This document shows positions 250 to 11,957 of a stretch of DNA of 24,214 nt, one piece after another. Each line of letters opens with the position of its first letter. Within the stretch, counting starts at the first letter, position 1. The notes under the pieces are model-generated. The model made no database searches and was not told the DNA's origin. It was given only the letters and a program-made list of their open reading frames with translations. This DNA comes from a virus, in the IMG/VR virus record IMGVR_UViG_3300009176_000074, positions 1 to 24,214 of that record, one strand, 5' to 3'. Both the position numbers and the translations under genes were made by a program.

Positions 250-582
250 TCAAAGCAGCGGCAATTGCGCCTGCGTCTCGGCGGGCGCTGCTATTGTCTT
301 GACCAAAACACAAACCTCTGCCGGGCTTCCGGTGTCGGTCGGTCGGGTTTGCCCGGTGCCGATAATCACGCCATCGTTTTTCAGATCGGAGAATCGCGCC
401 GAGCAGGTTTGATGGCGCATGCCGAGCGCAATCTCGGCTTCATAACAGGTGCAACCAGAACGCCCACAAGACCAAATATGTTGGAGCACCCGAGCACGAT
501 CTTGCGATTTGCGAGTCCGCTTGTTGGCCTCGACGCTTTGCGGATTTCCACCGTGATAGTTTCGCGTGATGTCGTCGCTCAT
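250..582 (-). CDS. Winged-helix DNA-binding-like phage protein
   Basis: A 110-residue protein. Residues about 28-95 look like a winged helix: a first helix (RARVLQHIW), a turn, a recognition-helix-like segment (GMRHQTCSARFSDLKNDG) and a beta-hairpin wing (VIIGTGQTRPTDTGSPAEV). Proteins with the pattern LG.RHQT.SAR..DL...G are common in phage early regions and are assumed to bind DNA; no target is known. The ATG overlaps the methyltransferase stop in an ATGA junction (579-582) with GAGGAGG upstream, so the two are translationally coupled. Confidence 0.75.
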   Translation of the reverse strand: MSDDITRNYHGGNPQSVEANKRTRKSQDRARVLQHIWSCGRSGCTCYEAEIALGMRHQTCSARFSDLKNDGVIIGTGQTRPTDTGSPAEVCVLVKTIAAPAETQAQLPLL

Positions 583-1335: not shown

Positions 1336-1545
1336 CTATCCCTCGCGCTCGACGCGCCAGCTCGCCGCGGCCTCCTGCGAAATCAAAATGCGGCGGCCGA
1401 TTTTCATTTCTCGCGGCGCTTCCTTGCGCTTCCTTAGAACGTAATACATGCGAGTGCTAATCCCATGCGCCTCGCAGAATTCCTGAATCGAAAACGCCGC
1501 GATGCTTGTTCCCGCTGGCCGTCGCCGATGCTTCCCCTTGGGCAT
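1336..1545 (-). CDS. AlpA/excisionase-like helix-turn-helix protein
   Basis: A 69-residue basic protein. Residues about 17-65 follow the AlpA/excisionase-type winged HTH pattern: FSIQEFCEAHGISTRMYYVL (helix-turn-helix), a basic turn RKRKEAPREMKIGRR, then ILISQEAAASW. Such proteins either bend DNA as recombination directionality factors or regulate integrase genes. Position directly downstream of the integrase on the same strand favours an excisionase role, but this is inference. ATG 1545 was chosen because GAGG lies just upstream; longer in-frame extensions run into the structured gap. It could also be an ordinary phage regulator. Confidence 0.7.
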   Translation of the reverse strand: MPKGKHRRRPAGTSIAAFSIQEFCEAHGISTRMYYVLRKRKEAPREMKIGRRILISQEAAASWRVEREG

Positions 1546-1590
1546 GCTTGCACCTCTAACGTAGTTGGGATGCAGCACCATAGAATCAGG

Positions 1591-1680
1591 AAGGCGCCAC
1601 ACCATGACGGTGCGGCGCCTTGCTGTTGCTTGCAATGTTTTCCGCTTGTGGAAAACGGGGGTAGTGCCACCGTGTCACTA
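1591..1680. other. Cluster of three inverted repeats after the integrase (terminator and/or attachment-site candidate)
   Basis: Three inverted repeats occur in 90 bp: a 13-bp arm pair with one G-U in the leftward RNA (1591-1603 with 1609-1621, 5-nt loop), GTTTTCC/GGAAAAC (1637-1643 with 1650-1656), and TAGTG/CACTA (1662-1666 with 1676-1680), the last overlapping the integrase stop. The large hairpin lies where an integrase terminator would be, but neither strand has a proper T-run after it. The position beside int and the xis-like gene also suits attP arm sites. No tRNA-like sequence is visible. Which role applies cannot be told here. Confidence 0.5.
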
Positions 1681-2877
1681 TCTTAGCGGCACCACGTTAC
1701 CGACCAGCGGCAGCTCGACCTCGAGCAGGCCCGCACGTGCCGAGTCGTCGTACTGGTCGATGTCGCGCGCATAGTTGCGCTCGATCATCACCACCGAGGT
1801 ATCATGGATCGCAGCGATGGTGCGCAACGGCACCCGGTTCGCCTTGATGCGCCGCACGATGCTCGAGTGGCGCAGCGCGTAGTAGGTCACCTTGCGCGGA
1901 TGGTCGGCCAGGCCAGCCACCACCACCGCACGCGCGAACGGCCGGGCATAGTCGGAGCTGCTCGCCGACCAGGCGTCACCCGTGCTGCGCACCAGGAGCG
2001 GCTCGCTCGGCCCGCGGTTGGAACGCAGCTTGGCAGCGAGCGCCGGTGTAATCGGCACCGCGATGTGGCGCGCCTTGCTGCCGGTGCCTTTCTTGCTGGT
2101 CGGCATCATCAGCCGCGGCGCACCCTCGGCCTGCAGATCGCGCACCTCGAGCCGCACAATCTGCGAGGGCCGGGCGCCGGTCACCGCGCCGACCTCAACG
2201 AACAGGCCGAACGCCGGATCCTCACGATAGGCTGCGGCCACCAGGTCGCGCACCTGGTCATCGCTTAGCACCACGTTGTTGGCGGCATGGCCGTGCGGCT
2301 TTTGCTTGAGCCCGATGCGCCACGCCTCGGTCGAGATCCCTTGCTCGGGGTAGGCATCGGCCGCGCCGGTGAGCGCCGACTTGAGGATGCGCACCGTGCG
2401 GTTGACGGTGGCAGGCGCCGCGGTGATGCCATCACGCCAGGCCTTTAGCTCGCGGGCGGTGAGCTGCTGCACCTCGCGGCCGAGGAGCTGCGGCGCCACC
2501 TGGTTGAGCCAGTAGCGCACCCGGCTGACGTTGCCCGGATGGCGGTCGGCATTGCCCGCGGCATACTCATCGAGCGCACGCGCCACCGTCAGCGCACCCT
2601 CGAGCGCCGGTGCCCGGTTGAGCTTGCGTGCCTTGTCCTCGGCCTGCTCATAGGTCAGCACCTCTAACCCATTGGCCTCCTCGAGGTCATCCGCCAGGCC
2701 GATGGCCTTGAGCTTGTTGTTGCCCTTGCCGTCAGCCAGGCGGGCCGACCAGGTGCCCGCGCGGCCCTCGAGTCGGCGATAGCCGAGCGAGATCCCAGGC
2801 GTGGCGGTGGCGATGAAGTAGGGCTTGCCGCGGGCCAGGAGGCGAGCGCGGGCCTTGATGGTGGTGAGCGTGGTCAT
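1678..2877 (-). CDS. int: Tyrosine recombinase, phage integrase
   Basis: A 399-residue protein. An N-terminal DNA-binding region (about 1-90) is followed by a SAM-like core-binding domain (about 95-190, containing LTARELKAWRDG and TVNRTVRILKSAL) and the catalytic domain (about 200-385). Catalytic residues visible are R236 in TGARPSQI, the K263 region, R336 in TYYALRHS, H359 in AIHDTS and the nucleophile Y369 in MIERNY. The usual first His of box II is Y333, a substitution I recall from rhizobial phage integrases. It catalyses site-specific integration and, with an RDF, excision. Start 2877 was chosen over TTG 2907 because AAGGAC sits 7 nt upstream in a conserved stem-loop leader. Confidence 0.95.
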   Translation of the reverse strand: MTTLTTIKARARLLARGKPYFIATATPGISLGYRRLEGRAGTWSARLADGKGNNKLKAIGLADDLEEANGLEVLTYEQAEDKARKLNRAPALEGALTVARALDEYAAGNADRHPGNVSRVRYWLNQVAPQLLGREVQQLTARELKAWRDGITAAPATVNRTVRILKSALTGAADAYPEQGISTEAWRIGLKQKPHGHAANNVVLSDDQVRDLVAAAYREDPAFGLFVEVGAVTGARPSQIVRLEVRDLQAEGAPRLMMPTSKKGTGSKARHIAVPITPALAAKLRSNRGPSEPLLVRSTGDAWSASSSDYARPFARAVVVAGLADHPRKVTYYALRHSSIVRRIKANRVPLRTIAAIHDTSVVMIERNYARDIDQYDDSARAGLLEVELPLVGNVVPLR

Positions 2878-2884
2878 GTCAGGT

Positions 2885-2912
2885 GTCCTTGTGTTGGGCC
2901 GCGTCAACGGCC
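2885..2912 (-). promoter_or_regulatory. Leader stem-loop A (TTGACG loop) before integrase
   Basis: Minus strand: GGCCG, loop TTGACG, CGGCC (2912-2897), then CAACAC, then AAGGAC (2890-2885) 7 nt before ATG 2877. The TGA stop of the upstream secreted-protein gene is inside the loop. No good promoter is visible just upstream, so here the element may act in a read-through transcript. One of four leftward copies; see 3782, 4775 and 9049. Confidence 0.75.
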
Positions 2913-3299
2913 GATTACGCTGCCGGTTAGTACGTCAGTCATGGAAAATTCGATCTGCTCGCGATACCAGCCCGACCGCCTGGCCTTGGCATCACGGCAT
3001 CGCGCCGCCACGGCGAACGTGCTGCGGTCGGTTTGCTTGATGGTCATGAACTGGCAGGTGATGGGCTGCGGCACCTCGCTGACTTCCAGGTGCTCGACAT
3101 AGCCGCGGGCGCCGAGCTGCAGCCAATCGCCGGTACAGGCCTGGCGCGTGCTGCGCTGGTAGGTCGAGCTAACCCGGCCCTCGCTGTCGGTTATGCCGGT
3201 GGCGCACCAGCCACCGAGCATTTCCTTGTGCAGCTCATCGGCGTGGGCGCTGCCCGCCAGGAGGGCGAGCAGCGCGGTGGTGGCGAGGAGGCGCGTCAT
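2904..3299 (-). CDS. Secreted Cys-rich small protein
   Basis: A 131-residue protein with a clear signal peptide: basic MTR, hydrophobic LLATTALLALLAG, and an AHA cleavage motif before D21. The mature part has four cysteines (C32, C55, C82, C101), likely two disulfides in the periplasm. WCATG and the C...C pattern recall small host-type exported proteins, but no family is recognised. AGGAG lies upstream of ATG 3299, which overlaps the preceding gene by 4 nt. A secreted cargo gene immediately before a phage integrase could be a lysogenic conversion factor (inference). Its stop codon lies inside the integrase leader stem-loop. Confidence 0.75.
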   Translation of the reverse strand: MTRLLATTALLALLAGSAHADELHKEMLGGWCATGITDSEGRVSSTYQRSTRQACTGDWLQLGARGYVEHLEVSEVPQPITCQFMTIKQTDRSTFAVAARCRDAKARRSGWYREQIEFSMTDVLTGSVIGR

Positions 3300-3520
3300 T
3301 GCCCGCGCTCCTGCAGGAAGGCATCACGCTGCGCGCGGGCGGCCTGGTAGCCCTCGAGGAAGGCGAGCTGCAGGGCCTTGTCGGTGAACCTGGCCGAGGC
3401 TGTGCGCGCGACCGCAACCAGCAGCTCATCGGGCGCCTGGTGGTGGTGCTCACGGCCTTGCTCGCGGGCCGCCTCTGCTGCGGCCGCCGCCTGCACGATG
3501 GCCCATTGCTTGCGGTTCAT
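3296..3520 (-). CDS. Small helical protein of unknown function
   Basis: A 74-residue protein that is Ala/Arg/Gln rich and predicted helical, with a His run (REHHHQAPDE) near residue 25 and the segment LAFLEGYQAARAQRDAFLQE at the C-terminus. It is linked by ATGA overlaps on both sides (3517-3520 upstream, 3296-3299 downstream), which supports it as a real gene in the 3774-2904 operon. No domain recognised. Confidence 0.65.
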   Translation of the reverse strand: MNRKQWAIVQAAAAAEAAREQGREHHHQAPDELLVAVARTASARFTDKALQLAFLEGYQAARAQRDAFLQERGQ

Positions 3521-3774
3521 CGCTTGCCCCCGATCACCTGCGCCTCAACGATCTCGACGGTGACATCGTCTCGGGTCCAGCTCCGGGCCTGCTTCTGCGC
3601 CAGGGCGAGCGAACCGGCCCAGGAGGTTTTATCGTAGGCCGGGATCCAGGTGCCGGTTACCTTGCTGGTGTAGCCTTCGAAATGGATCACCACGCAATGG
3701 GTGTAGGTGCGGCCCGCGGTGGTGCGGGTGTGGCGCTTGCCGGTGGCGTCGTGAGCTTCATACTTGGTCGTCAT
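3517..3774 (-). CDS. Small conserved-type phage protein of unknown function
   Basis: An 85-residue protein starting MTTKYEAHD. The pattern ATGKRHTRTTAGRTYTHCVVIHF then W...D..V.VEIVEA suggests a compact beta-rich fold found in small phage proteins, function unknown. Two ATGs are available (3780 and 3774); 3774 is chosen because AAGGAC then lies 7 nt upstream, the same spacing as in the integrase and 52-aa secreted-protein leaders, whereas 3780 would leave only 1 nt. First gene of a three-gene overlapping set ending with the secreted protein. Confidence 0.7.
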   Translation of the reverse strand: MTTKYEAHDATGKRHTRTTAGRTYTHCVVIHFEGYTSKVTGTWIPAYDKTSWAGSLALAQKQARSWTRDDVTVEIVEAQVIGGKR

Positions 3775-3781
3775 GGTCATG

Positions 3782-3812
3782 GTCCTTGTGTTGTGGCCCG
3801 CGTCAACGGGCC
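3782..3812 (-). promoter_or_regulatory. Leader stem-loop B (TTGACG loop)
   Basis: Minus strand: GGCCCG, loop TTGACG, CGGGCC (3812-3795), then ACAACAC, then AAGGAC (3787-3782), 7 nt before ATG 3774. The 12-nt tail CAACACAAGGAC is identical to copy A. The third base pair differs from copies A and C with pairing kept. TAGGAT at 3824-3819 is in position for a -10 but has no convincing -35. Confidence 0.75.
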
Positions 3813-3821
3813 GGGTTTATC

Positions 3822-4766
3822 CTACGCCGCGCGGCGCAGGAATTCGGGGATCTCGAAACCGTCAACCGGCACCAGGGCGGGCGCGTCGACCAGCTTAACC
3901 GGCGCCTCGCAGCCGTGGCGGTAGGCGAACAGCCAGCGGTCCACCTCGCTCGAGCCCGGCGCCGTGGCGCGGTCGAGGTCGGCATGGAATTGCGCGAGGT
4001 GCTCGAGCGTCGGGCGCGCCACCTGGTGCGGTGCCTCCGGCCCGGCGCTCGCCTGGATCTTGCCGTCCACCCGCGCTGCGGTCTGCGCAATGGTCGAGCC
4101 CTGGCGAGCGGCGCGGCAATGATTCCTCGCCACGTTGGTGGAGTCGGAGGAGTCGAACGGATAGAGGTGGGCCATCTCCTGCGCCCGCATCATGTGAATG
4201 CGCGGCCGCACATAGGCGCCCTCGCCGTCGATCTCCCACTGGTCAATCGCGGCGAACACCTCGGCGATGCGAGCGCGCCAGGCCGCCGACCGCGGCTTGG
4301 CATAGGCGCCGCTCGAGCCGATGCCGACATAGCCGAACCCCTCGCAGAGGTGGAGCAGGTAGCCGATGGACTCGTGCATGTGCCAGATCGGCATCACGCG
4401 GTCGGTGTCATCGAATAGGTAAGTAGTCTCGGCAATCAACTGCGCGTTCTGCTGCTCGGTGCCGTCGATGACATCGGGCAACACCGCCACCGCCTGCGGG
4501 CAACGGTCGAGGATATCGTTTGCCCACTCGGCAAAGCCCTCGAGGTAGGCCTCATCGTTCATGGTGTCGACACCGGATTGCCAGGCGCTAAAGGCGCCGT
4601 TGTCGACCAGGAGGATGCCCTCGCTGCCGACCAGGTCGATGGCCTGGTCGAGCTGCTTGCCGAGCTTCTGGCGGGTGCCGTAGCTCACGCAAAAGGAGGC
4701 GCCGCGGAGCTGCTCGAGCGCAGGCATCGGGTTGAGCGGCAGGCCATAGATGGTGGTCTTGTTCAT
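3822..4766 (-). CDS. TGT-superfamily protein resembling DpdA (7-deazaguanine DNA transglycosylase)
   Basis: A 314-residue protein with the motif order of the tRNA-guanine transglycosylase TIM barrel: VDNGAFSAW (D55), VLPDVIDG (D98, D101), MPIWHMHES (H129, H131), YVGIGSSGAY (146-155), RIHMMRAQEM (H191) and LYPFDSSDSTN (D205, D208). Bacterial TGTs exchange a tRNA guanine for preQ1; phage DpdA relatives insert 7-deazaguanines into DNA and thereby evade restriction. The phage setting, with an adenine methyltransferase nearby, favours DNA modification. No preQ0 synthesis gene is visible, so the base would have to come from the host or from genes outside the window. Start 4766 follows AAGGAC by 8 nt. 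A tRNA-acting enzyme or another TIM-barrel function cannot be excluded. Confidence 0.72.
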   Translation of the reverse strand: MNKTTIYGLPLNPMPALEQLRGASFCVSYGTRQKLGKQLDQAIDLVGSEGILLVDNGAFSAWQSGVDTMNDEAYLEGFAEWANDILDRCPQAVAVLPDVIDGTEQQNAQLIAETTYLFDDTDRVMPIWHMHESIGYLLHLCEGFGYVGIGSSGAYAKPRSAAWRARIAEVFAAIDQWEIDGEGAYVRPRIHMMRAQEMAHLYPFDSSDSTNVARNHCRAARQGSTIAQTAARVDGKIQASAGPEAPHQVARPTLEHLAQFHADLDRATAPGSSEVDRWLFAYRHGCEAPVKLVDAPALVPVDGFEIPEFLRRAA

Positions 4767-4774
4767 TTGCTTTT

Positions 4775-4809
4775 GTCCTTGTTTTCTCGGTGGCCGCGTC
4801 AACGGCCAC
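4775..4809 (-). promoter_or_regulatory. Leader stem-loop C (TTGACG loop) at the RNA 5' end
   Basis: Minus strand: GTGGCCG, loop TTGACG, CGGCCAC (4809-4790), a 7-bp perfect stem, then CGAGAAAAC and AAGGAC (4780-4775), 8 nt before ATG 4766. The strong promoter at 4844-4816 would start RNA at about 4809, so the stem would be the first structure of the transcript. Confidence 0.8.
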
Positions 4810-4815
4810 GCCCCC

Positions 4816-4844
4816 AATATAGTGTCCCGGCCATGTCCTGGCAA
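4816..4844 (-). promoter_or_regulatory. Strong sigma70-like promoter for the DpdA-like operon
   Basis: Minus strand TTGCCA (4844-4839), 17-nt spacer, TATATT (4821-4816). The predicted start is near 4809, exactly at leader stem-loop C. The spacer contains the 13-mer GGACATGGCCGGG, which recurs 198 bp upstream, suggesting an operator between the -35 and -10 boxes. Confidence 0.7.
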
Positions 4845-5036
4845 GCGTAATGCGCACCCATGCAGCTCAATTCACCTCGGTGCGGGTGGCTCAATGATTA
4901 CAAGGGCTTAGCAACCGGCCATGCAGCTCGGTGCGCAATGCACGTGCCCTATCGCGGCCTGCCAGCCGGGCGCGGCAATGCCGATTCCATGCGGGTTTAG
5001 CCCCGGTCAGCCGTGCCCCATGCCCCGGCCATGTCC
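4826..5036. repeat. Repeat-rich non-coding region with a 13-bp direct repeat and shorter repeats
   Basis: The 431-bp gap 4767-5197 has no supportable gene. It contains CCCGGCCATGTCC exactly twice (4826-4838, 5024-5036), CATGCAGCTC twice (4859-4868, 4920-4929) and CTCGGTGCG twice (4876-4884, 4927-4935). The last two fuse into one block in the second copy. Short palindromes such as GTGC/GCAC (4931-4943) are also present. The left part is the promoter of the DpdA-like gene and the right part holds the terminator of the ParB-like operon. Operator array or iteron-type origin are the two readings; I cannot decide. Confidence 0.55.
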
Positions 5037-5044
5037 CGGCCAGC

Positions 5045-5069
5045 AAAAAGGCCCCGGTTTCCCGAGGCC
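5045..5069 (-). terminator. Rho-independent terminator after the ParB-like operon
   Basis: Minus strand GGCCTCGG, loop GAAA, CCGGGGCC, then TTTTT. The stem is 8 bp with one G-U and a GNRA tetraloop, followed by five T (5049-5045). It closes the leftward transcript that carries the two ParB-like genes and isolates the promoter at 4816. Confidence 0.85.
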
Positions 5070-5197
5070 TCCTGGCTGCGGTCGATGACCTTGAACGGAG
5101 TTTTGCCTACCAGGCGCCAGGCCTGGCCGAGGAGGGCCGCAGGTCACCTTTCGTTGCGTCGATGCCGCCGCCCACCGGCGTAAGCCCCCTCCTCGCT

Positions 5198-6205
5198 TTA
5201 GTCCTCCGGCGGCGCCGTCCAGGCGCTCGCCGCCGCAACGATGGCTTGGATCTGCGGCAGCACCGCCACCAGCTCGGCCTGGCATTGCTTGAGGTTGCGG
5301 CCCCAGACCTTGCGGCCGCCGCCTGGCATGCCCTCGAGCGTCATCACCAATTCGGCCGGGGAAAGCGACCGCGGCAGGGCGAGAAACTTCTGACACAACA
5401 CCCCAACGTCGCGCACGATGGCGATGATGGCGCGCGCCGCCTGCTCGTTCTGCCCCTTGATCTTGTCGGTCAGGCGATGCGTCTGCACGAACCCGTGCTG
5501 CTTGTGGAACACATCCAGGCGAGTCCAGCCGGGGTAATCCGGGTGCGGTTCGTTGGCAATTTCCGGCCCCGGCTTGCCGATCTCCTCGCAGGTGAATTTA
5601 GGCAGCGGTGGCGGCGGCGGCTTGACCGGACCACGCGGATCCAACCGCGGCTTGCGCGGCTTGTATTTCAGCGGACGCAGGCCTCGACTTGTCTGCACCT
5701 TTTTCGGCTGCTTCGATGAATCTGAATCGCACTGTGCGATTGAGACTCTCGATTCACGCAGTTTTCGCACATAGCTTTCGACAACCCCGGCCGCCTTGGC
5801 AACGTCAACGTTGCTCATGGCCTGCCCGCGCTCGGTTTCGAGGAGCTGGCGCACCGAAAATTCCTTGTCTGCAGGGCTGCGCTTCAAGCCCTCATGCGCC
5901 TGCGCCTGCACCGCCCACAGCACCACCTGCTCGCGGTCCTCGGCTGGCGTCACCCGCACCTTGATCAACGCCGTACCGTTGAGCAGGTAGGCTTGCTTGC
6001 GCAGGAACCCATCATAGACCAGCAGCTCGCCCCCGACCTCGGCGCAATCGAGCGGCGGGAAATCCGAGCCGTCCCGCATCAGCGTGGCATAGGCCCGGAT
6101 GGTCTTTTGCGGCAACACCTGCCGCATCTGCAGATCGGAATAGCAGGCCGCCTTTTCGGTCGGCACCTCGATGAGACGGTAGATCCGTTCGTCCTTGCTC
6201 AACAT
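5198..6205 (-). CDS. ParB/Srx-fold nuclease-like domain protein with HTH
   Basis: A 335-residue protein. Residues about 8-90 have the ParB/sulfiredoxin pattern (LPQKTIRAYATLM, then PPLDCAEVGGELLVYDGFLRKQA), with DGFLR (65-69) in place of the usual DGxHR. SNVDVAKAAGVVESYVRKLR (131-150) is a helix-turn-helix as in ParB. A Pro-rich linker with PPPPP (about 188-202) precedes a C-terminal helical domain. ParB-type phage proteins act in partition, transcription or as CTP-dependent DNA clamps or nucleases; which applies is unknown, and no ParA is visible. Start 6205 has GGAGGAGG upstream; an upstream in-frame extension would run through a terminator hairpin. Confidence 0.75.
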   Translation of the reverse strand: MLSKDERIYRLIEVPTEKAACYSDLQMRQVLPQKTIRAYATLMRDGSDFPPLDCAEVGGELLVYDGFLRKQAYLLNGTALIKVRVTPAEDREQVVLWAVQAQAHEGLKRSPADKEFSVRQLLETERGQAMSNVDVAKAAGVVESYVRKLRESRVSIAQCDSDSSKQPKKVQTSRGLRPLKYKPRKPRLDPRGPVKPPPPPLPKFTCEEIGKPGPEIANEPHPDYPGWTRLDVFHKQHGFVQTHRLTDKIKGQNEQAARAIIAIVRDVGVLCQKFLALPRSLSPAELVMTLEGMPGGGRKVWGRNLKQCQAELVAVLPQIQAIVAAASAWTAPPED

Positions 6206-6223
6206 CGCTTGTCCTCCTCCTAG

Positions 6224-6253
6224 AAAAGGGAAAGGGCCTTGCGGCCCCTTCCC
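6224..6253 (-). terminator. Terminator or attenuator between the two ParB-like genes
   Basis: Minus strand GGGAAGGGGCC, loop GCAA, GGCCCTTTCCC, then TTTT. It is an 11-bp stem with one G-U and a GNRA loop. It ends only 18 nt before the downstream ATG at 6205, abutting its ribosome binding site, so it probably lowers read-through from the first gene into the second. Confidence 0.7.
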
Positions 6254-6272
6254 CCTAGTCCTGCCGTTTCTT

Positions 6273-7286
6273 CTATTGGGCAGCTTCCTCGACGGCCGCG
6301 GCATCTTCAAACCGCGGAAACGTTTCGTCGACGCGCACCTGCACGGCCTTCATGGCCTGGTGGATATGCCAGGCACCGAACGCCTTGATGATGTGCGCCA
6401 GGATCATCGACACCGAGGTGAGCTTGCGCTTGCCCCCGGCCGGGATCGCCCCGTTGTCGGAATCCTGGTAGGTCTTGAGCTTCTTGCGCAACGCAACAAG
6501 CGGATTGCCTGCCGTGTTGGGCCCGTCAGCCTCGGCCGCTATCAGGCCGCGCATGAATTCGTCCAAGGTGTCCTCACCGAACAAGGTCAGGATCTTGAAG
6601 GCGACGAATCCGGCAACATGCTCGCGCAGCATGATCTCGATGGCGCCGGGATACTCCGAGGCCACCAAGCCAACGGCCTCTTGCAGCCCGTCGTGTGCCA
6701 CCAGGTAGCGCAAGACCTCGATGGGCGAGGCCTTGTTCATGTGGCCTTTGCTCGCAGGCGTCATCACGCCTGCGTCATAGTGCCGGGCCAGCCGGATCAC
6801 CGCGGTGATTTCCCGCGCTAATCCATTGTGCCCGGCAGTCTCGAGCGCATCCGCCGCCGACCTGATTTTCGAGTTGTCGATATAGGCAAACCCGTTGTTG
6901 ATCTCAGGTGCGGTTGCCACGACATAGGTGCGGAACGTAACGCCCGACAGCAATCCTGCCCAAGCGCGATGTTGCCCATCACGGTCCTGCAGGATGATGG
7001 TCTGGCCGGTCGGCTGCCAATCCCCATCGATCATCATCTGTGCATAGTAGGCCACAGCGTTGAACGATGGAGTCCGGTTCGCCTTGTGCATGACCGTGCG
7101 CCGGAGAAACGCTAACGAATGCTCCGGCGTCCAATCGTGCCAGCCGTCGCCCAGAGTAATCGACTCCGGTGGCGGCTGTTCGTTCGACCAGGCGGTGAAA
7201 TCCGCAACAAGCTGCTTGAACTCTTTCGCCGTTGCGGTGGCGAGGTTGAATCCCGCAATGGGATTCGGGGTAGTAGTCGTCTGCAT
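6273..7286 (-). CDS. ParB-like DGQHR-motif phage protein
   Basis: A 337-residue protein. The segment NAVAYYAQMMIDGDWQPTGQ, followed by TIILQDRDGQHRAWAGLLSG (97-116) and TYVVATAP, is the ParB/sulfiredoxin-like core with a canonical DGQHR (103-107). The FAYIDNSKIRSAADAL stretch and a helical C-terminus follow. Similar proteins are frequent in rhizobial and other phages; their function is not established, though regulation or DNA binding and cutting is assumed. GAGGAGGG precedes ATG 7286, and a small hairpin (7301-7314) lies just upstream. It is divergent from the Cro-like gene at 7395, whose product may control it. Confidence 0.72.
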   Translation of the reverse strand: MQTTTTPNPIAGFNLATATAKEFKQLVADFTAWSNEQPPPESITLGDGWHDWTPEHSLAFLRRTVMHKANRTPSFNAVAYYAQMMIDGDWQPTGQTIILQDRDGQHRAWAGLLSGVTFRTYVVATAPEINNGFAYIDNSKIRSAADALETAGHNGLAREITAVIRLARHYDAGVMTPASKGHMNKASPIEVLRYLVAHDGLQEAVGLVASEYPGAIEIMLREHVAGFVAFKILTLFGEDTLDEFMRGLIAAEADGPNTAGNPLVALRKKLKTYQDSDNGAIPAGGKRKLTSVSMILAHIIKAFGAWHIHQAMKAVQVRVDETFPRFEDAAAVEEAAQ

Positions 7287-7340
7287 GACGACTCCCTCCT
7301 CTGCTAACGAGCAGGGTGCTGGCCCTCATGCGCGAGGCGC

Positions 7341-7368
7341 TTGCGCTGCTCGACGGTCAGCCTAGACT
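7341..7368 (+). promoter_or_regulatory. Promoter for the Cro-like repressor
   Basis: TTGCGC (7341-7346), 16-nt spacer, TAGACT (7363-7368), giving a start near 7375 and a 20-nt leader before ATG 7395. The whole 7287-7394 gap separates two divergent genes and should hold operators, but no clean palindromic operator is seen apart from hairpin CTGCT/AGCAG at 7301-7314. Confidence 0.45.
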
Positions 7369-7394
7369 ACCGAATATCAACTTGGCAAGGGACC

Positions 7395-7601
7395 ATGACC
7401 GGCACCGCTAAAGATTTTCAAGACCGCCCATTGCAATTGGCGCTCGAAAAGGCTGGCGGTGTCCGGGCGCTCGCTCGCGCGCTCGGCATCAGCCACACCG
7501 CCATCCTGCAATGGCGGCGGGTGCCCTATGAACGGTTGCTCGAGGTCGAGAAAATTACCGGCATTCGCCGCGAGACATTGCGGCCGGAACTCTACCGCTA
7601 A
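7395..7601 (+). CDS. Cro/YdaS-like helix-turn-helix repressor
   Basis: A 68-residue protein. PLQLALEKAGGVRALARALGISHTAILQWRRVP is a classic Cro/YdaS-type HTH (AL.K.GG...LA..LGIS...I.QW..VP), followed by RLLEVEKITGIRRETLRPELY, the typical tail of this family. It binds operator DNA and in phages controls the lytic/lysogenic decision. It lies divergent to the ParB-like gene and is the only rightward gene in the left arm. Start 7395 follows AAGGGA closely; a longer frame upstream lacks a ribosome site. It abuts the convergent gene at 7602 with no gap. Confidence 0.88.
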   Translation: MTGTAKDFQDRPLQLALEKAGGVRALARALGISHTAILQWRRVPYERLLEVEKITGIRRETLRPELYR

Positions 7602-7835
7602 TCAGCCGCAGGTGAGCCGGGCTGGATCCTCGACGCGATAGAACCGAACCGAGTCCACCCGCAGCCACACCGAACCGTCCTTGCGCTGCAGCAGCGGCAG
7701 GCCGCCGCAGGTGCCGCGCACAATCGCACCCTCCCACTCGCCCGAGGATGACGGCACCACGATCACAATGAACACCGCCGCGAGCAGTATCGAGGCGCTC
7801 ACAATCCACACCGCCAGCGGCCACCATTGGATCAT
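7602..7835 (-). CDS. Small single-pass membrane protein
   Basis: A 77-residue protein. Residues 3-27 (WWPLAVWIVSASILLAAVFIVIVV) form one transmembrane helix. The remainder contains C43 and C76 and the strand-like GSVWLRVDSVRFYRVED. The ATG overlaps the zinc-ribbon gene stop by 4 nt (7832-7835). Last gene of the small-protein cassette 9041-7602. Function unknown. Confidence 0.65.
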   Translation of the reverse strand: MIQWWPLAVWIVSASILLAAVFIVIVVPSSSGEWEGAIVRGTCGGLPLLQRKDGSVWLRVDSVRFYRVEDPARLTCG

Positions 7836-8017
7836 GGCGTGCCCTCCTGCGCGCCCGGCCGTTTCTTGGAATAGGCCAGCGCGATGCGAGCAGGTAGCAC
7901 CACCTCCTCATCGCACCGCTGGCAGCAGCGGCCATCGGTGATGGGCCATGCGTCATTCGACCAGCCGAGCGCGGTGATGCCGCAGATCGAGCACACGAAT
8001 GGCGGACGCGGTTTCAT
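7832..8017 (-). CDS. Zinc-ribbon small phage protein
   Basis: A 61-residue protein with C9-x2-C12 and C32-x2-C35 (C31 also present) around GWSNDAWPITDGR, a layout seen in many small rhizobial phage proteins assumed to bind zinc. VLPARIALA follows the second pair. Start 8017 was chosen because it forms an ATGA junction with the gene at 8014-8178; the frame is open further upstream but without a ribosome site. Confidence 0.72.
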   Translation of the reverse strand: MKPRPPFVCSICGITALGWSNDAWPITDGRCCQRCDEEVVLPARIALAYSKKRPGAQEGTP

Positions 8018-8178
8018 GGCTCGGCTCGCTGCGCCGCATAGATTTCCCGCAGGAGTCGATGCAGCCTTGGCCATTGGCTTTCGGAGAGAGCTGCAATTTG
8101 GTTGTCGGGCAGGGCCATAATCATGCGGCCCTTCGAGTCGGGCTGAATGCAGATTTCAATCTTGAGTCCTTTGGTCAT
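8014..8178 (-). CDS. 54-residue phage protein of unknown function
   Basis: It starts MTKGLKIEICIQ and reads as a beta strand, a turn (PDSKGRMIMALPDN) and an amphipathic helix (SQWPRLHRLLREIYAAQRAE). GAGGAGAG lies 4 nt before ATG 8178. It overlaps the zinc-ribbon gene by 4 nt. No domain recognised. Confidence 0.65.
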   Translation of the reverse strand: MTKGLKIEICIQPDSKGRMIMALPDNQIAALSESQWPRLHRLLREIYAAQRAEP

Positions 8179-8195
8179 GCTCTCTCCTCCTCTGG

Positions 8196-8282
8196 TCATG
8201 GTGCCACCCCACGCATGATGGCCAGCCAGGCCACCGCGGTAGCGAGCACCAGCGCGATCATCACCACCTCGCGGGCGCTCAT
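8196..8282 (-). CDS. 28-residue membrane micro-protein
   Basis: The product starts MSAREVVMIALVLATAVAW and is one hydrophobic helix of about 20 residues followed by a basic end (MRGVAP). The ATG overlaps the stop of the upstream gene in an ATGA junction (8279-8282), the same coupling as its neighbours, and the gene fills a gap otherwise lacking coding. Too short for homology; judged from coupling and the membrane segment. Confidence 0.55.
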   Translation of the reverse strand: MSAREVVMIALVLATAVAWLAIMRGVAP

Positions 8283-8686
8283 CGCTTTCTCTCAATCGTG
8301 CTGCCGGAATACCGGCCTTGCCCGTCATAGTAATTGGTCGTTGGCCCCACCCGCACCGAGCTGCCGGAGAACCGCCCGGCCCCATCGTAATAGCTGGCAC
8401 CGTTCGGGCGGCTCACCGAGCTGCCCGCAAAGCTGCCGTTGGCGTTATAGAATTGCTTGCCCTCGGCCCTGGCGCAGCTCACCACCGCCCACAGCACCAC
8501 GCCCCACACCAGCGCCCGCTTGAAGCACCACCAGCCCCACAGCGCGGCGGCCTGGCGGGTGTCCTGGTTAATCTGCGCCAGGCGGGCACGGGCAATCTCC
8601 ACCTCGAGCCCGGCCAGCTCCTCGAGCAGCGCGTCGGCCGTGGGCGGCATCGGGCGCCGCCGACCGGGGAATTGCACCACGCTCAT
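8279..8686 (-). CDS. Membrane protein with three C-terminal 20-residue repeats
   Basis: A 135-residue protein. A Pro/Arg N-terminus and acidic helix (ADALLEELAGLEVEIARARLA) lead into a transmembrane or signal-anchor segment (about 56-72, ending VVSCARA). After it come three tandem units with period 20 and the core (F/Y)Y(N/D)xxGx(F/Y)(A/S)GS(S/T), starting near residues 79, 99 and 119. Such repeats are seen in small exported proteins of rhizobia, role unknown. ATGA overlaps on both sides tie it into the cassette. Confidence 0.68.
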   Translation of the reverse strand: MSVVQFPGRRRPMPPTADALLEELAGLEVEIARARLAQINQDTRQAAALWGWWCFKRALVWGVVLWAVVSCARAEGKQFYNANGSFAGSSVSRPNGASYYDGAGRFSGSSVRVGPTTNYYDGQGRYSGSTIERKR

Positions 8687-8883
8687 CGCCCGCCCTCCTG
8701 CTCGAGGGCGCGCATGGCCTCGGCCACGGTCGGGTGCCGACTGATGATCACGTAACCCGCCACGTATTCCTCGGTGATGACATAGGGCTGGCCGTCCCAG
8801 GCGTCCTTATCATAGGACACGCCGCGATGCAGGCACGGCCCGAGCTGGCCGATGTGGCCAACGGGGATTTGCTTGCGGCCCAT
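8683..8883 (-). CDS. 66-residue phage protein of unknown function
   Basis: It contains the segments CLHRGVSYDKDAWDG and YVITEEYVAGYVIISRHPTVAEAMRALEQEGG, consistent with a small alpha/beta fold. Start 8883 is preferred over 8895 because GGAGG lies 5 nt upstream and the ATG overlaps the TAA of the upstream gene (TAATG). No family recognised. Confidence 0.65.
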   Translation of the reverse strand: MGRKQIPVGHIGQLGPCLHRGVSYDKDAWDGQPYVITEEYVAGYVIISRHPTVAEAMRALEQEGGR

Positions 8884-9041
8884 TAGATCCTCCAATCGGC
8901 GTGGCCGAAACAGGCCGCCGGTGCTGGTGTTGGCAGATAAACGATGGTGGCCGTTGCTTGCGCCGCCCGGCCGAGCTGCCAGCCGGTGAACGGAAGTAAA
9001 GACACGGCTGCGAGCAGCAGCCCCGCGATTAGGATTTTCAT
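8883..9041 (-). CDS. 52-residue secreted or membrane-anchored protein, first gene of its operon
   Basis: The product starts MKILIAGLLLAAVSLLPFTG, an N-terminal hydrophobic segment with one Lys, followed by a short Ala/Pro-rich tail with a single Cys (AACFGHADWRI). It could be a small exported protein or a signal-anchored peptide. AAGGAC lies 7 nt upstream within stem-loop leader D, and a divergent promoter lies 45 nt further. The stop overlaps the next start. Confidence 0.62.
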   Translation of the reverse strand: MKILIAGLLLAAVSLLPFTGWQLGRAAQATATIVYLPTPAPAACFGHADWRI

Positions 9042-9048
9042 TGCCTGA

Positions 9049-9076
9049 GTCCTTGGTTGCGGCGCGTCATACGCCG
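9049..9076 (-). promoter_or_regulatory. Leader stem-loop D (TATGACG loop)
   Basis: Minus strand: CGGCG, loop TATGACG, CGCCG (9076-9060), then CAACC, then AAGGAC (9054-9049), 7 nt before ATG 9041. The stem bases differ from copies A-C but pair fully. The leftward promoter at 9114-9086 would start RNA near 9079, about 3 nt before the stem. Confidence 0.72.
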
Positions 9077-9085
9077 GGGTTCACA

Positions 9086-9126
9086 CATATATACGGTTGC
9101 CAGCGGGCGGGCAAGCGGCGTATATA
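9086..9126. promoter_or_regulatory. Symmetric divergent promoter pair
   Basis: Leftward: TTGCCC (9114-9109), 17 nt, TATATG (9091-9086). Rightward: TTGCCA (9097-9102), 18 nt, TATATA (9121-9126). The -35 boxes face each other as TTGCC (9097-9101) and GGCAA (9110-9114), with TATATA-like boxes at both ends, so the region is an imperfect palindrome centred near 9105. The two promoters should compete or be controlled together. Confidence 0.68.
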
Positions 9127-9135
9127 CGAGTCCGA

Positions 9136-9323
9136 TGACGCCCAAGGACAAGCGGCGGCCGCGCCGAGGTGGGCCGCGTAAACTCTACACCACCCGCATC
9201 TTGCTTTCGCTCGCGCCGGGCGTGCTCGAGCGCATCGACCGCGTGTTGCACCAGGATGAGAGCCGCCTGGCCTTCATCCGCGCTGGCATCGAGCGTGAGT
9301 TGGCGCAACGGGGATATAAATGA
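9136..9323 (+). CDS. Small ribbon-helix-helix-like protein, first gene of the recombination operon
   Basis: A 62-residue protein. A basic N-terminus (KDKRRPRRGGPRK) precedes YTTRILLSLAPGVLERIDRV and ESRLAFIRAGIERELAQRG, which fits strand-helix-helix as in MetJ/Arc repressors. It probably binds DNA and may autoregulate the divergent promoter. The predicted rightward RNA start (about 9132-9134) is only 2-4 nt before ATG 9136 and no ribosome site is visible, so it may be translated from a leaderless mRNA. The stop overlaps the exonuclease start. Confidence 0.7.
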
Positions 9324-11447: not shown

Positions 11448-11957
11448 ATGGCCGACAAGCCCGCACCCATGCCTAAGGTCACCCCGATGCCGCCACCGGC
11501 GGCCAGGCCCAACCGCGTCCAGCATGACGCCTACGCCGAGGAGGCCTTGCGCGCAGCTCAACGCCACATCGACCAGATCCAGGAGATCGACCGGCTCGGC
11601 CAGGAGCTTGAGGAGTGGCGCCGCCGGGCCCAGCTCGCCGAGGCCGAGGCCCGCCGCCTCGACCAGCGCAATGAGGATCTGCAGGGCATGCTCGAGCGCG
11701 AGCGCGAGCGGCTCACCGATGAGCGAGACGCCTACCGCAACCGGGTCAATGCCCTGGTGGCGGGTTTCCACACCGCGGGCGGCATCATCCTGCGGCTGCT
11801 CGAAACCGCGCAGGGCGAGGTGCGGCCAACGGTGAACCTCACCACCCTGGCGGATGAGGTCGACCGCGTGCAGAAGGCACAGCTCGAGCTGCCCGATGGC
11901 TCGCCCGATGAGCCGATGCCGCGGGCGGTTACCGCGGGCCCGCGCTCCGATGGGTAG
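11448..11957 (+). CDS. Coiled-coil phage protein
   Basis: A 169-residue protein. A Pro-rich N-terminus (1-23) is followed by a long charged helix (about 27-100, rich in E, R, Q and L), a short hydrophobic stretch (VAGFHTAGGIILRLLETAQG) and an acidic tail. GAGGAGGAG overlaps the end of recT just upstream. It may be a structural partner of recombination proteins, but no domain is recognised. Confidence 0.7.
   Translation: MADKPAPMPKVTPMPPPAARPNRVQHDAYAEEALRAAQRHIDQIQEIDRLGQELEEWRRRAQLAEAEARRLDQRNEDLQGMLERERERLTDERDAYRNRVNALVAGFHTAGGIILRLLETAQGEVRPTVNLTTLADEVDRVQKAQLELPDGSPDEPMPRAVTAGPRSDG

What the first reader, a model, noticed from the sequence alone, without database searches (positions are those of the whole stretch)
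2885..9076. Family of start-associated stem-loops with variable paired stems and a conserved TTGACG loop
Four leftward genes carry the same leader: stems GGCCG, GGCCCG, GTGGCCG and CGGCG each pair perfectly with their partner arm although the bases differ, while the loop (TTGACG three times, TATGACG once) and AAGGAC are kept; the tail contains CAAC in three of the four. AAGGAC is always 7-8 nt before ATG. Copies: 2885-2912, 3782-3812, 4775-4809, 9049-9076. Variable but paired stems with a constant loop are the mark of an RNA structure rather than a DNA operator. A loop-binding protein could co-control integrase, the DpdA-like gene and two others. Cluster K mycobacteriophage start-associated sequences are the nearest precedent I know.
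Basis: partly seen in the sequence, partly recalled or inferred. Interest (0 to 1): 0.85.

Follow-up and report, generated by a model that had tools for sequence, protein, structure and literature searches.

The report
Phage mRNA leader hairpins, constant loop
Several genes of two related, uncultured phages begin their messages with a small RNA hairpin whose stem letters differ from gene to gene but always pair, while the loop stays UUGACG (or a near variant); this points to a shared RNA tag that marks a set of accessory genes for common control, by something not yet identified.

Summary
A search for any leader hairpin, loop unspecified, finds exactly the four reported ones in the window; shuffled sequence gives 0.37 on average and never two with the same loop. 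The decisive addition is a second phage (IMG/VR contig 3300015200_000006; shared proteins 55-91% identical), reached through its DpdA-like gene, not through the motif. It carries four more leaders: CCGG[TTGACG]CCGG, GGTGG[TTGACG]CCACC, GCCG[TTGACG]CGGC and CGAGC[GTTGACG]GCTCG, each followed by CCAAGGA and ATG. A covariance model built from three window copies ranks three of them first in that genome (E 6e-6 to 1e-4). Four of five stem pairs show two-sided changes; 0 of 500 shuffles reach the covariation score. Six of eight leaders lie 6-9 nt behind a sigma70-like -10 box, so the hairpin is probably the 5' end of the mRNA. Predicted folds do not mask the Shine-Dalgarno site. No Rfam match; in IMG/VR the strict motif is confined to this lineage. 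Conclusion: a lineage-specific RNA leader element, probably recognised through its loop by an unidentified factor. The RNA structure is well supported; the factor and the direction of control are inference.

The parts
2885..2914 (-). Leader 1 (integrase, CDS 1678-2877): hairpin 2912-2897 GGCCG[TTGACG]CGGCC, linker CAACAC, SD AAGGAC 2890-2885
   Evidence: (model built partly from it); no clear promoter (p 0.17)
3782..3813 (-). Leader 2 (87/85-aa gene 3517-3780): hairpin 3812-3795 GGCCCG[TTGACG]CGGGCC, linker ACAACAC, SD AAGGAC 3787-3782
   Evidence: -10-like TAGGAT 6 nt before the stem but no -35 (p 0.045)
4775..4809 (-). Leader 3 (DpdA/TGT-like gene 3822-4766): hairpin 4809-4790 GTGGCCG[TTGACG]CGGCCAC, linker CGAGAAAAC, SD AAGGAC 4780-4775
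   Evidence: the dpdA of the second phage has the same leader with other stem bases
4816..4844 (-). Promoter of leader 3: TTGCCA-17-TATATT, -10 ends 6 nt before the stem
   Evidence: p 0.0001; consensus match, not a mapped start
9049..9078 (-). Leader 4 (52-aa hydrophobic peptide gene 8883-9041): hairpin 9076-9060 CGGCG[TATGACG]CGCCG, linker CAACC, SD AAGGAC 9054-9049
   Evidence: found as held-out copy by model R1, E 0.013
9086..9114 (-). Promoter of leader 4: TTGCCC-17-TATATG, -10 ends 9 nt before the stem
   Evidence: p 0.0047
1678..2877 (-). Tyrosine integrase gene under leader 1
   Evidence: phrog_1 E 2e-28, Pfam Phage_integrase E 2e-4, below its cut-off
3517..3774 (-). 85-aa gene of unknown function under leader 2
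   Evidence: no family hit
3822..4766 (-). DpdA / queuine tRNA-ribosyltransferase-like gene under leader 3
   Evidence: phrog_887 E 1.5e-36
8883..9041 (-). 52-aa peptide gene under leader 4
   Evidence: no family hit

Best explanation
Each leader is an RNA element at, or near, the 5' end of a phage mRNA: a 4-7 bp stem of nearly free sequence but obligatory pairing, closed by a loop with the constant core UGAC (usually U-UGAC-G), then a 5-9 nt A-rich linker, an accessible ribosome-binding site CAAGGAC, and the start codon. Most likely (inference) the loop is recognised by a trans-acting factor, phage- or host-encoded, that docks just upstream of the ribosome site and so sets the translation or lifetime of a group of accessory genes together (integrase, DpdA-like enzyme, small unknown proteins). 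Shown here: the recurrence, the covariation, the second phage, the promoter spacing. Inferred: the factor, and whether it represses or activates.
For: Loop-blind scan finds only these hairpins. Second phage found by protein carries four more with different stems. Covariation 0/500 shuffles, two-sided changes in 4 of 5 pairs. Model from three window copies finds leader 4 (E 0.013) and three leaders of the second phage as top hits, E 6e-6 to 1e-4. Loop core UGAC 8/8 while stems turn over: selection on loop letters, not only on having a hairpin. Hairpin at +1 behind sigma70-like promoters in 6 of 8. SD not masked by the hairpin in predicted folds. Leaders 1 and 2 lack a clear promoter and may be internal in the mRNA, which suits a binding site better than a 5' cap. 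UNAC-type loops are used for protein binding in other phages (T4 gp43 operator UAAC, PMC3014915; phage 21 boxB CUAACC, PMC12550061).
Against: No binding protein identified; no expression or probing data; only two phages and eight copies; one invariant stem pair (G-C next to the loop, 7 of 8). A stability role could by itself favour one good loop. UGAC as a UNAC-like fold is not documented in the papers read. The covariation test on seven copies uses an alignment fitted to the model.
Confidence: 0.45

Rival explanations
1. A generic 5'-terminal stabilising hairpin: the stem at +1 leaves almost no unpaired 5' bases, hindering pyrophosphate removal and 5'-end-dependent RNase E attack; the loop is constant only because UGAC with U.G closure is a compact, stable cap. 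No dedicated factor.
For: Stem starts 6-9 nt after the -10 box in 6 of 8 leaders. Pyrophosphohydrolase prefers unpaired 5' ends and 5' stem-loops stabilise mRNAs (PMC3997798). Some DpdA relatives have other hairpins, with other loops, between promoter and SD (L005, L006, L007, L013).
Against: Loop core identical in 8/8 although stems changed at 4 of 5 pairs; other stable loops would serve as well. Leaders 1 and 2 have no clear promoter, so their hairpins may not be 5'-terminal.
Confidence: 0.32
2. An antitermination signal of the boxB (nut) or put kind, loaded by an N-like protein at the start of the transcript.
For: Position at the transcript start; variable stem with constant loop is also seen among lambdoid boxB hairpins (own knowledge); phage 21 boxB has a UNAC-type hexaloop CUAACC (PMC12550061).
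Against: With the stem at +1 there is no transcribed room for a boxA upstream; one hairpin, not the two of put; the hairpin is tied to the SD at 5-9 nt and stands before short single genes; no N-like shared arginine-rich protein recognised.
Confidence: 0.07
3. A DNA operator: TTGACG is the target of a DNA-binding protein, and the arms are incidental.
For: All copies lie near promoters; conserved core of fixed sequence.
Against: In a dimer operator the arms are conserved and the centre varies; here it is the reverse. Pairing persists through two-sided changes; U.G pairs only make sense in the sense RNA; fixed distance to SD and ATG.
Confidence: 0.04
4. The loop holds a start codon (TTG or ATG followed by ACG): a leader peptide or an N-terminal extension.
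For: The loop reads [T/A]TG-ACG; in 5 of 8 leaders it is in frame with the gene's ATG (by hand).
Against: 5 of 8 in frame is not significant (binomial p about 0.09); in the other three the frame differs; no SD can precede it when the stem is at +1; stem bases change without regard to codons.
Confidence: 0.02
5. A small-molecule or base-modification element tied to DpdA (preQ1-like aptamer, or a hairpin modified by the TGT-like enzyme).
For: The DpdA-like gene carries the leader in both phages; hairpin plus A-rich tail plus SD recalls small preQ1 riboswitches (own knowledge).
Against: No Rfam hit to any preQ1 family even at E up to 5 in 2600-9300; a 6-nt loop is too small for the preQ1-I pseudoknot and has UGA, not the UGU that bacterial TGT needs (own knowledge); integrase and unrelated genes carry it; other DpdA relatives lack it.
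Confidence: 0.03

Closest known systems
T4/RB69 gene 43 (DNA polymerase) translational operator
   Same: Phage mRNA hairpin upstream of the start codon with a UNAC-type loop (UAAC) in which loop letters matter for protein binding (PMC3014915)
   Different: [quoted passage not shown] here one loop on at least six unrelated genes, none a polymerase, no binder known
5'-terminal stabilising stem-loops (ompA, papA leaders)
   Same: Hairpin at or near +1, single-stranded linker, then SD (PMC3997798)
   Different: Those are single leaders and, as far as I know, their loop letters do not matter; here one loop is repeated while stems vary
Lambdoid boxB / phage 21 boxB hairpins
   Same: Short phage RNA hairpin with a UNAC-type hexaloop, early in the transcript (PMC12550061)
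   Different: No boxA, no recognised N-like protein; tied to SD and start codon of single genes
Cluster K mycobacteriophage SAS/ESAS
   Same: Repeated element close to many start codons of one phage group
   Different: SAS is a constant 13-mer GGGATAGGAGCCC that contains the SD; ESAS are conserved 17-nt arms with a variable spacer (PMC12699233). Here arms vary, loop and SD are constant, and the SD lies outside the hairpin

Membership tests
Cluster K SAS/ESAS | Constant 13-mer GGGATAGGAGCCC within 2 mismatches at the start codon | tested here: not met
   Leaders read in full: no such sequence; SD is CAAGGAC outside the hairpin. Definition from PMC12699233
Cluster K SAS/ESAS | ESAS: paired imperfect 17-nt inverted repeats, variable spacer | tested here: not met
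   Arms are 4-7 bp and vary in sequence; the centre is constant
boxA-boxB nut site | boxA in the RNA upstream of boxB | tested here: not met
   Stem starts 6-9 nt after the -10 box in 6 of 8 leaders, so no transcribed room upstream; judged from predicted promoters
boxA-boxB nut site | Phage N-like arginine-rich antiterminator | tested here: inconclusive
   No family hit; only weak basic-armed candidates
Phage translational operator (gp43/MS2 type) | Hairpin next to the ribosome site, conserved in structure, with constant loop | tested here: met
Phage translational operator (gp43/MS2 type) | Specific phage protein binds it and lowers translation | not testable with these tools
   needs binding and reporter assays
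5'-terminal stabilising stem-loop | Stem at the transcript 5' end with few unpaired bases | tested here: inconclusive
   Predicted for 6 of 8; no clear promoter for leaders 1 and 2; starts not mapped
5'-terminal stabilising stem-loop | Longer mRNA half-life with the hairpin | not testable with these tools
   needs half-life measurement
Any Rfam 15 family, incl. preQ1 riboswitches | Match to the family covariance model | tested here: not met
   No gathering hits in the window or G001; no relevant hit at E up to 5 in 2600-9300
Intrinsic terminator | G+C-rich stem followed by a U run | tested here: not met
   Tails are A-rich CAACACAAGGAC-type

The most novel reading that the evidence does not exclude
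A phage post-transcriptional regulon: one lineage marks its separately expressed accessory genes with a common UGAC-loop RNA tag read by a dedicated, still unknown phage RNA-binding protein, so that integrase, the DpdA-like modifying enzyme and small proteins rise and fall together.
Probability: 0.3. Interest if true: 0.72.

Novelty: new variant of a known kind. Interest (0 to 1): 0.58.

Why it matters
Hairpins of free stem and fixed loop, repeated before unrelated genes and shared by two diverged phages, are strong comparative evidence for an RNA-level regulon in a phage with an integrase; phage RNA operators are mostly known one gene at a time. It offers a small, defined element (about 30 nt) whose partner can be fished for, and if it couples integrase to other accessory genes it would add a post-transcriptional layer to the choice between lysogeny and lysis. 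If it proves only a stabilising cap, it is a compact natural leader cassette.

Tried and rejected
Megablast of the window against named phages: no match. Relatives through integrase and the 6273-7286 gene: none in IMG/VR. The looser TGACGS scan gave two candidates of interest outside the lineage: L227, ATAGC[ATGAC]GCTAT directly after TTGACT-17-TATAAT and before AACAAACAAGGAC-ATG; and L178, GCCCC[ACGTGAC]GGGGC before AAGGAC-ATG. Both were picked by a pattern that contains TGACG and AAGGAC, so their scores are biased and chance is not excluded. The covariance-model hits in other whole records that I read look like chance or coding matches. Same-phage contig G012 (99.96%) holds only leader 4; relative G013 ends before the region. 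An exonuclease search in bacterial genomes gave only 23-26% identical clostridial proteins, so no host was found. Loop-tail pseudoknot (UUG with CAA) considered: fails for leader 4, whose loop changed while the tail did not. Ribbon-helix-helix-like protein 9135-9323 considered as partner: no homologue in G001 in the protein comparison made (which covered its frame).

Full report
OBSERVATION. The window is a 24,214-base IMG/VR virus record with no near match among named phages. TTGACGCG N5-25 AAGGA occurs three times against 0.03 expected. To avoid choosing the motif after seeing it, I scanned both strands for any hairpin (stem of at least 4 bp, loop 5-7 nt) ending 3-12 nt before AAGGA-N5-10-ATG. 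The window gives four, precisely the reported ones; first-order shuffles give 0.37 on average and never two with the same loop.

A SECOND PHAGE. The DpdA-like protein led to 17 IMG/VR relatives. One, contig IMGVR_UViG_3300015200_000006 (G001, 40,649 b), has the same leader before its dpdA with a different stem, CCGG[TTGACG]CCGG-GAAAAACC-AAGGAC-ATG, and three more: GGTGG[TTGACG]CCACC before a 59-aa gene, GCCG[TTGACG]CGGC before a 137-aa protein with a signal-peptide-like start, and CGAGC[GTTGACG]GCTCG before a 147-aa gene. The loop-blind scan finds five hairpins there, four of them these. G001 is a true relative of the window: exonuclease 61-63%, RecT-like 55-58%, the 11448-11957 protein 82%, a 110-aa protein 91%. 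G001 was found by protein, not by motif, so these copies are an independent test.

COVARIATION AND HELD-OUT TEST. On six equal-length copies, 4 of 5 pairs show changes on both sides; cells paired 96.7% against 71.8% in shuffles; covariation score 0.667 against 0.219, 0 of 500 shuffles. With leader 4 added (seven copies; an alignment fitted to the model, so leaning towards it) the score is 0.752 against 0.197, 0 of 500, and sliding the partner by 1-3 columns drops it to 0.17 or less. The copies are few and partly paralogous, so the shuffle counts are not probabilities. A covariance model from leaders 1-3 alone (R1) ranks leader 4 fourth in the window (E 0.013) and finds three G001 leaders as its three best hits there (E 6.3e-6, 4.8e-5, 1.2e-4); the fourth ranks fifth (E 0.2), its closing pair being C-G. 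One stem pair is U.G in the sense strand (G001 dpdA), and RNAfold closes the loop with U.G in most copies; both would be A.C mismatches on the other strand. The element therefore most likely acts as sense RNA.

POSITION. A sigma70-like site with its -10 ending 6-9 nt before the stem is present for six of eight leaders (empirical p 0.0001 to 0.0047 each); the integrase leader (p 0.17) and the 87-aa gene leader (p 0.045) lack a clear one. So in most cases the hairpin should be the first thing transcribed. Leaders 1 and 2 lie in short gaps of the leftward gene run and may be internal, or use activator-dependent promoters. Stem to SD is 5-9 nt and SD to AUG 6-8 nt. Partition-function folding leaves SD and AUG about as open with the hairpin as without it (the w_int row matched the dpdA copy by mistake and is corrected), so the hairpin does not simply mask the ribosome site in cis.

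DISTRIBUTION. A strict pattern (GTTGACGC, A-rich linker, CAAGGAC, ATG) over all of IMG/VR hits three G001 leaders and two other places without stems; the window's own record may be left out of such scans. A looser scan and model searches of 40 whole records add no convincing family member outside the lineage; L227 and L178 are possible single cases. No Rfam family matches. The element is lineage-specific at the present depth of sampling.

MECHANISM. The eight stems are nearly free in sequence, whereas the core UGAC is the same in 8/8 and UUGACG in 7/8. If only a stable hairpin were needed, loops should drift as the stems did. I therefore favour recognition of the loop by a factor that docks next to the ribosome site (inference). 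UNAC-type loops serve for protein binding in the T4/RB69 gene 43 operator (UAAC; PMC3014915) and in phage 21 boxB (CUAACC; PMC12550061). UGAC itself is not documented in those papers, so the likeness of fold is inference. The main rival is a 5'-terminal stabilising cap, since pyrophosphohydrolase prefers unpaired 5' ends (PMC3997798). The two are not exclusive. Antitermination, DNA operator, start codon in the loop and preQ1-like aptamer were weighed and are unlikely for the reasons given under rivals. No partner protein could be named: shared candidates are an HTH_17/excisionase-like protein with an MPKGKHRRRP arm (1336-1605) and the 91% conserved 110-aa protein, neither with a known RNA-binding fold.

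COMPARISON. Cluster K SAS/ESAS elements (PMC12699233) have a constant 13-mer, or conserved arms with a variable spacer; here the arms vary and the loop is constant, so membership fails although the place near start codons is alike. The best description is a new, lineage-specific variant of phage mRNA hairpin leaders. Limits: two phages, eight copies, a nearly invariant closing pair, no mapped transcripts and no expression data.

Noticed in passing
G001 (IMGVR_UViG_3300015200_000006) upstream of the leaders at 18.0k, 20.3k and 28.7k: The three promoters share TTGACCCAT in the -35 and spacer start, two of them with a CCAT(T/G)ATGG palindrome in the spacer: a likely shared DNA operator on top of the RNA leader.
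   Followed up: no
L005, L006, L007, L013 upstream of their DpdA-like genes: Hairpins with other loops also stand between a promoter-like site and the start codon (for example GCGGGCGAATTGCGCCCGC in L006): the promoter-hairpin-start layout may be more general than the TTGACG loop.
   Followed up: partly
L227 6640-6715: TTGACT-17-TATAAT, then ATAGC[ATGAC]GCTAT, then AACAAACAAGGACAAGACAATG in an unrelated phage contig: possible distant or convergent case; chance not excluded.
   Followed up: partly
window 250-582 (-): 110-aa protein with no confident family hit, 91% identical to G001, the most conserved protein between the two phages.
   Followed up: partly
window 1336-1605 (-): HTH_17/excisionase-like protein with basic arm MPKGKHRRRP next to integrase; two paralogues in G001 (31536-31805 and 27859-28140).
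   Followed up: partly
window 9135-9323 (+): Small protein, ribbon-helix-helix-like by eye, with arginine-rich start MTPKDKRRPRRGGPRK, divergent from leader 4 and just before the YqaJ exonuclease gene.
   Followed up: partly
window 5198-7601: ParB-like gene (phrog_1033, weak) and a phrog_5931 gene beside a divergent YdaS/Cro-like regulator at 7395-7601 (+).
   Followed up: no
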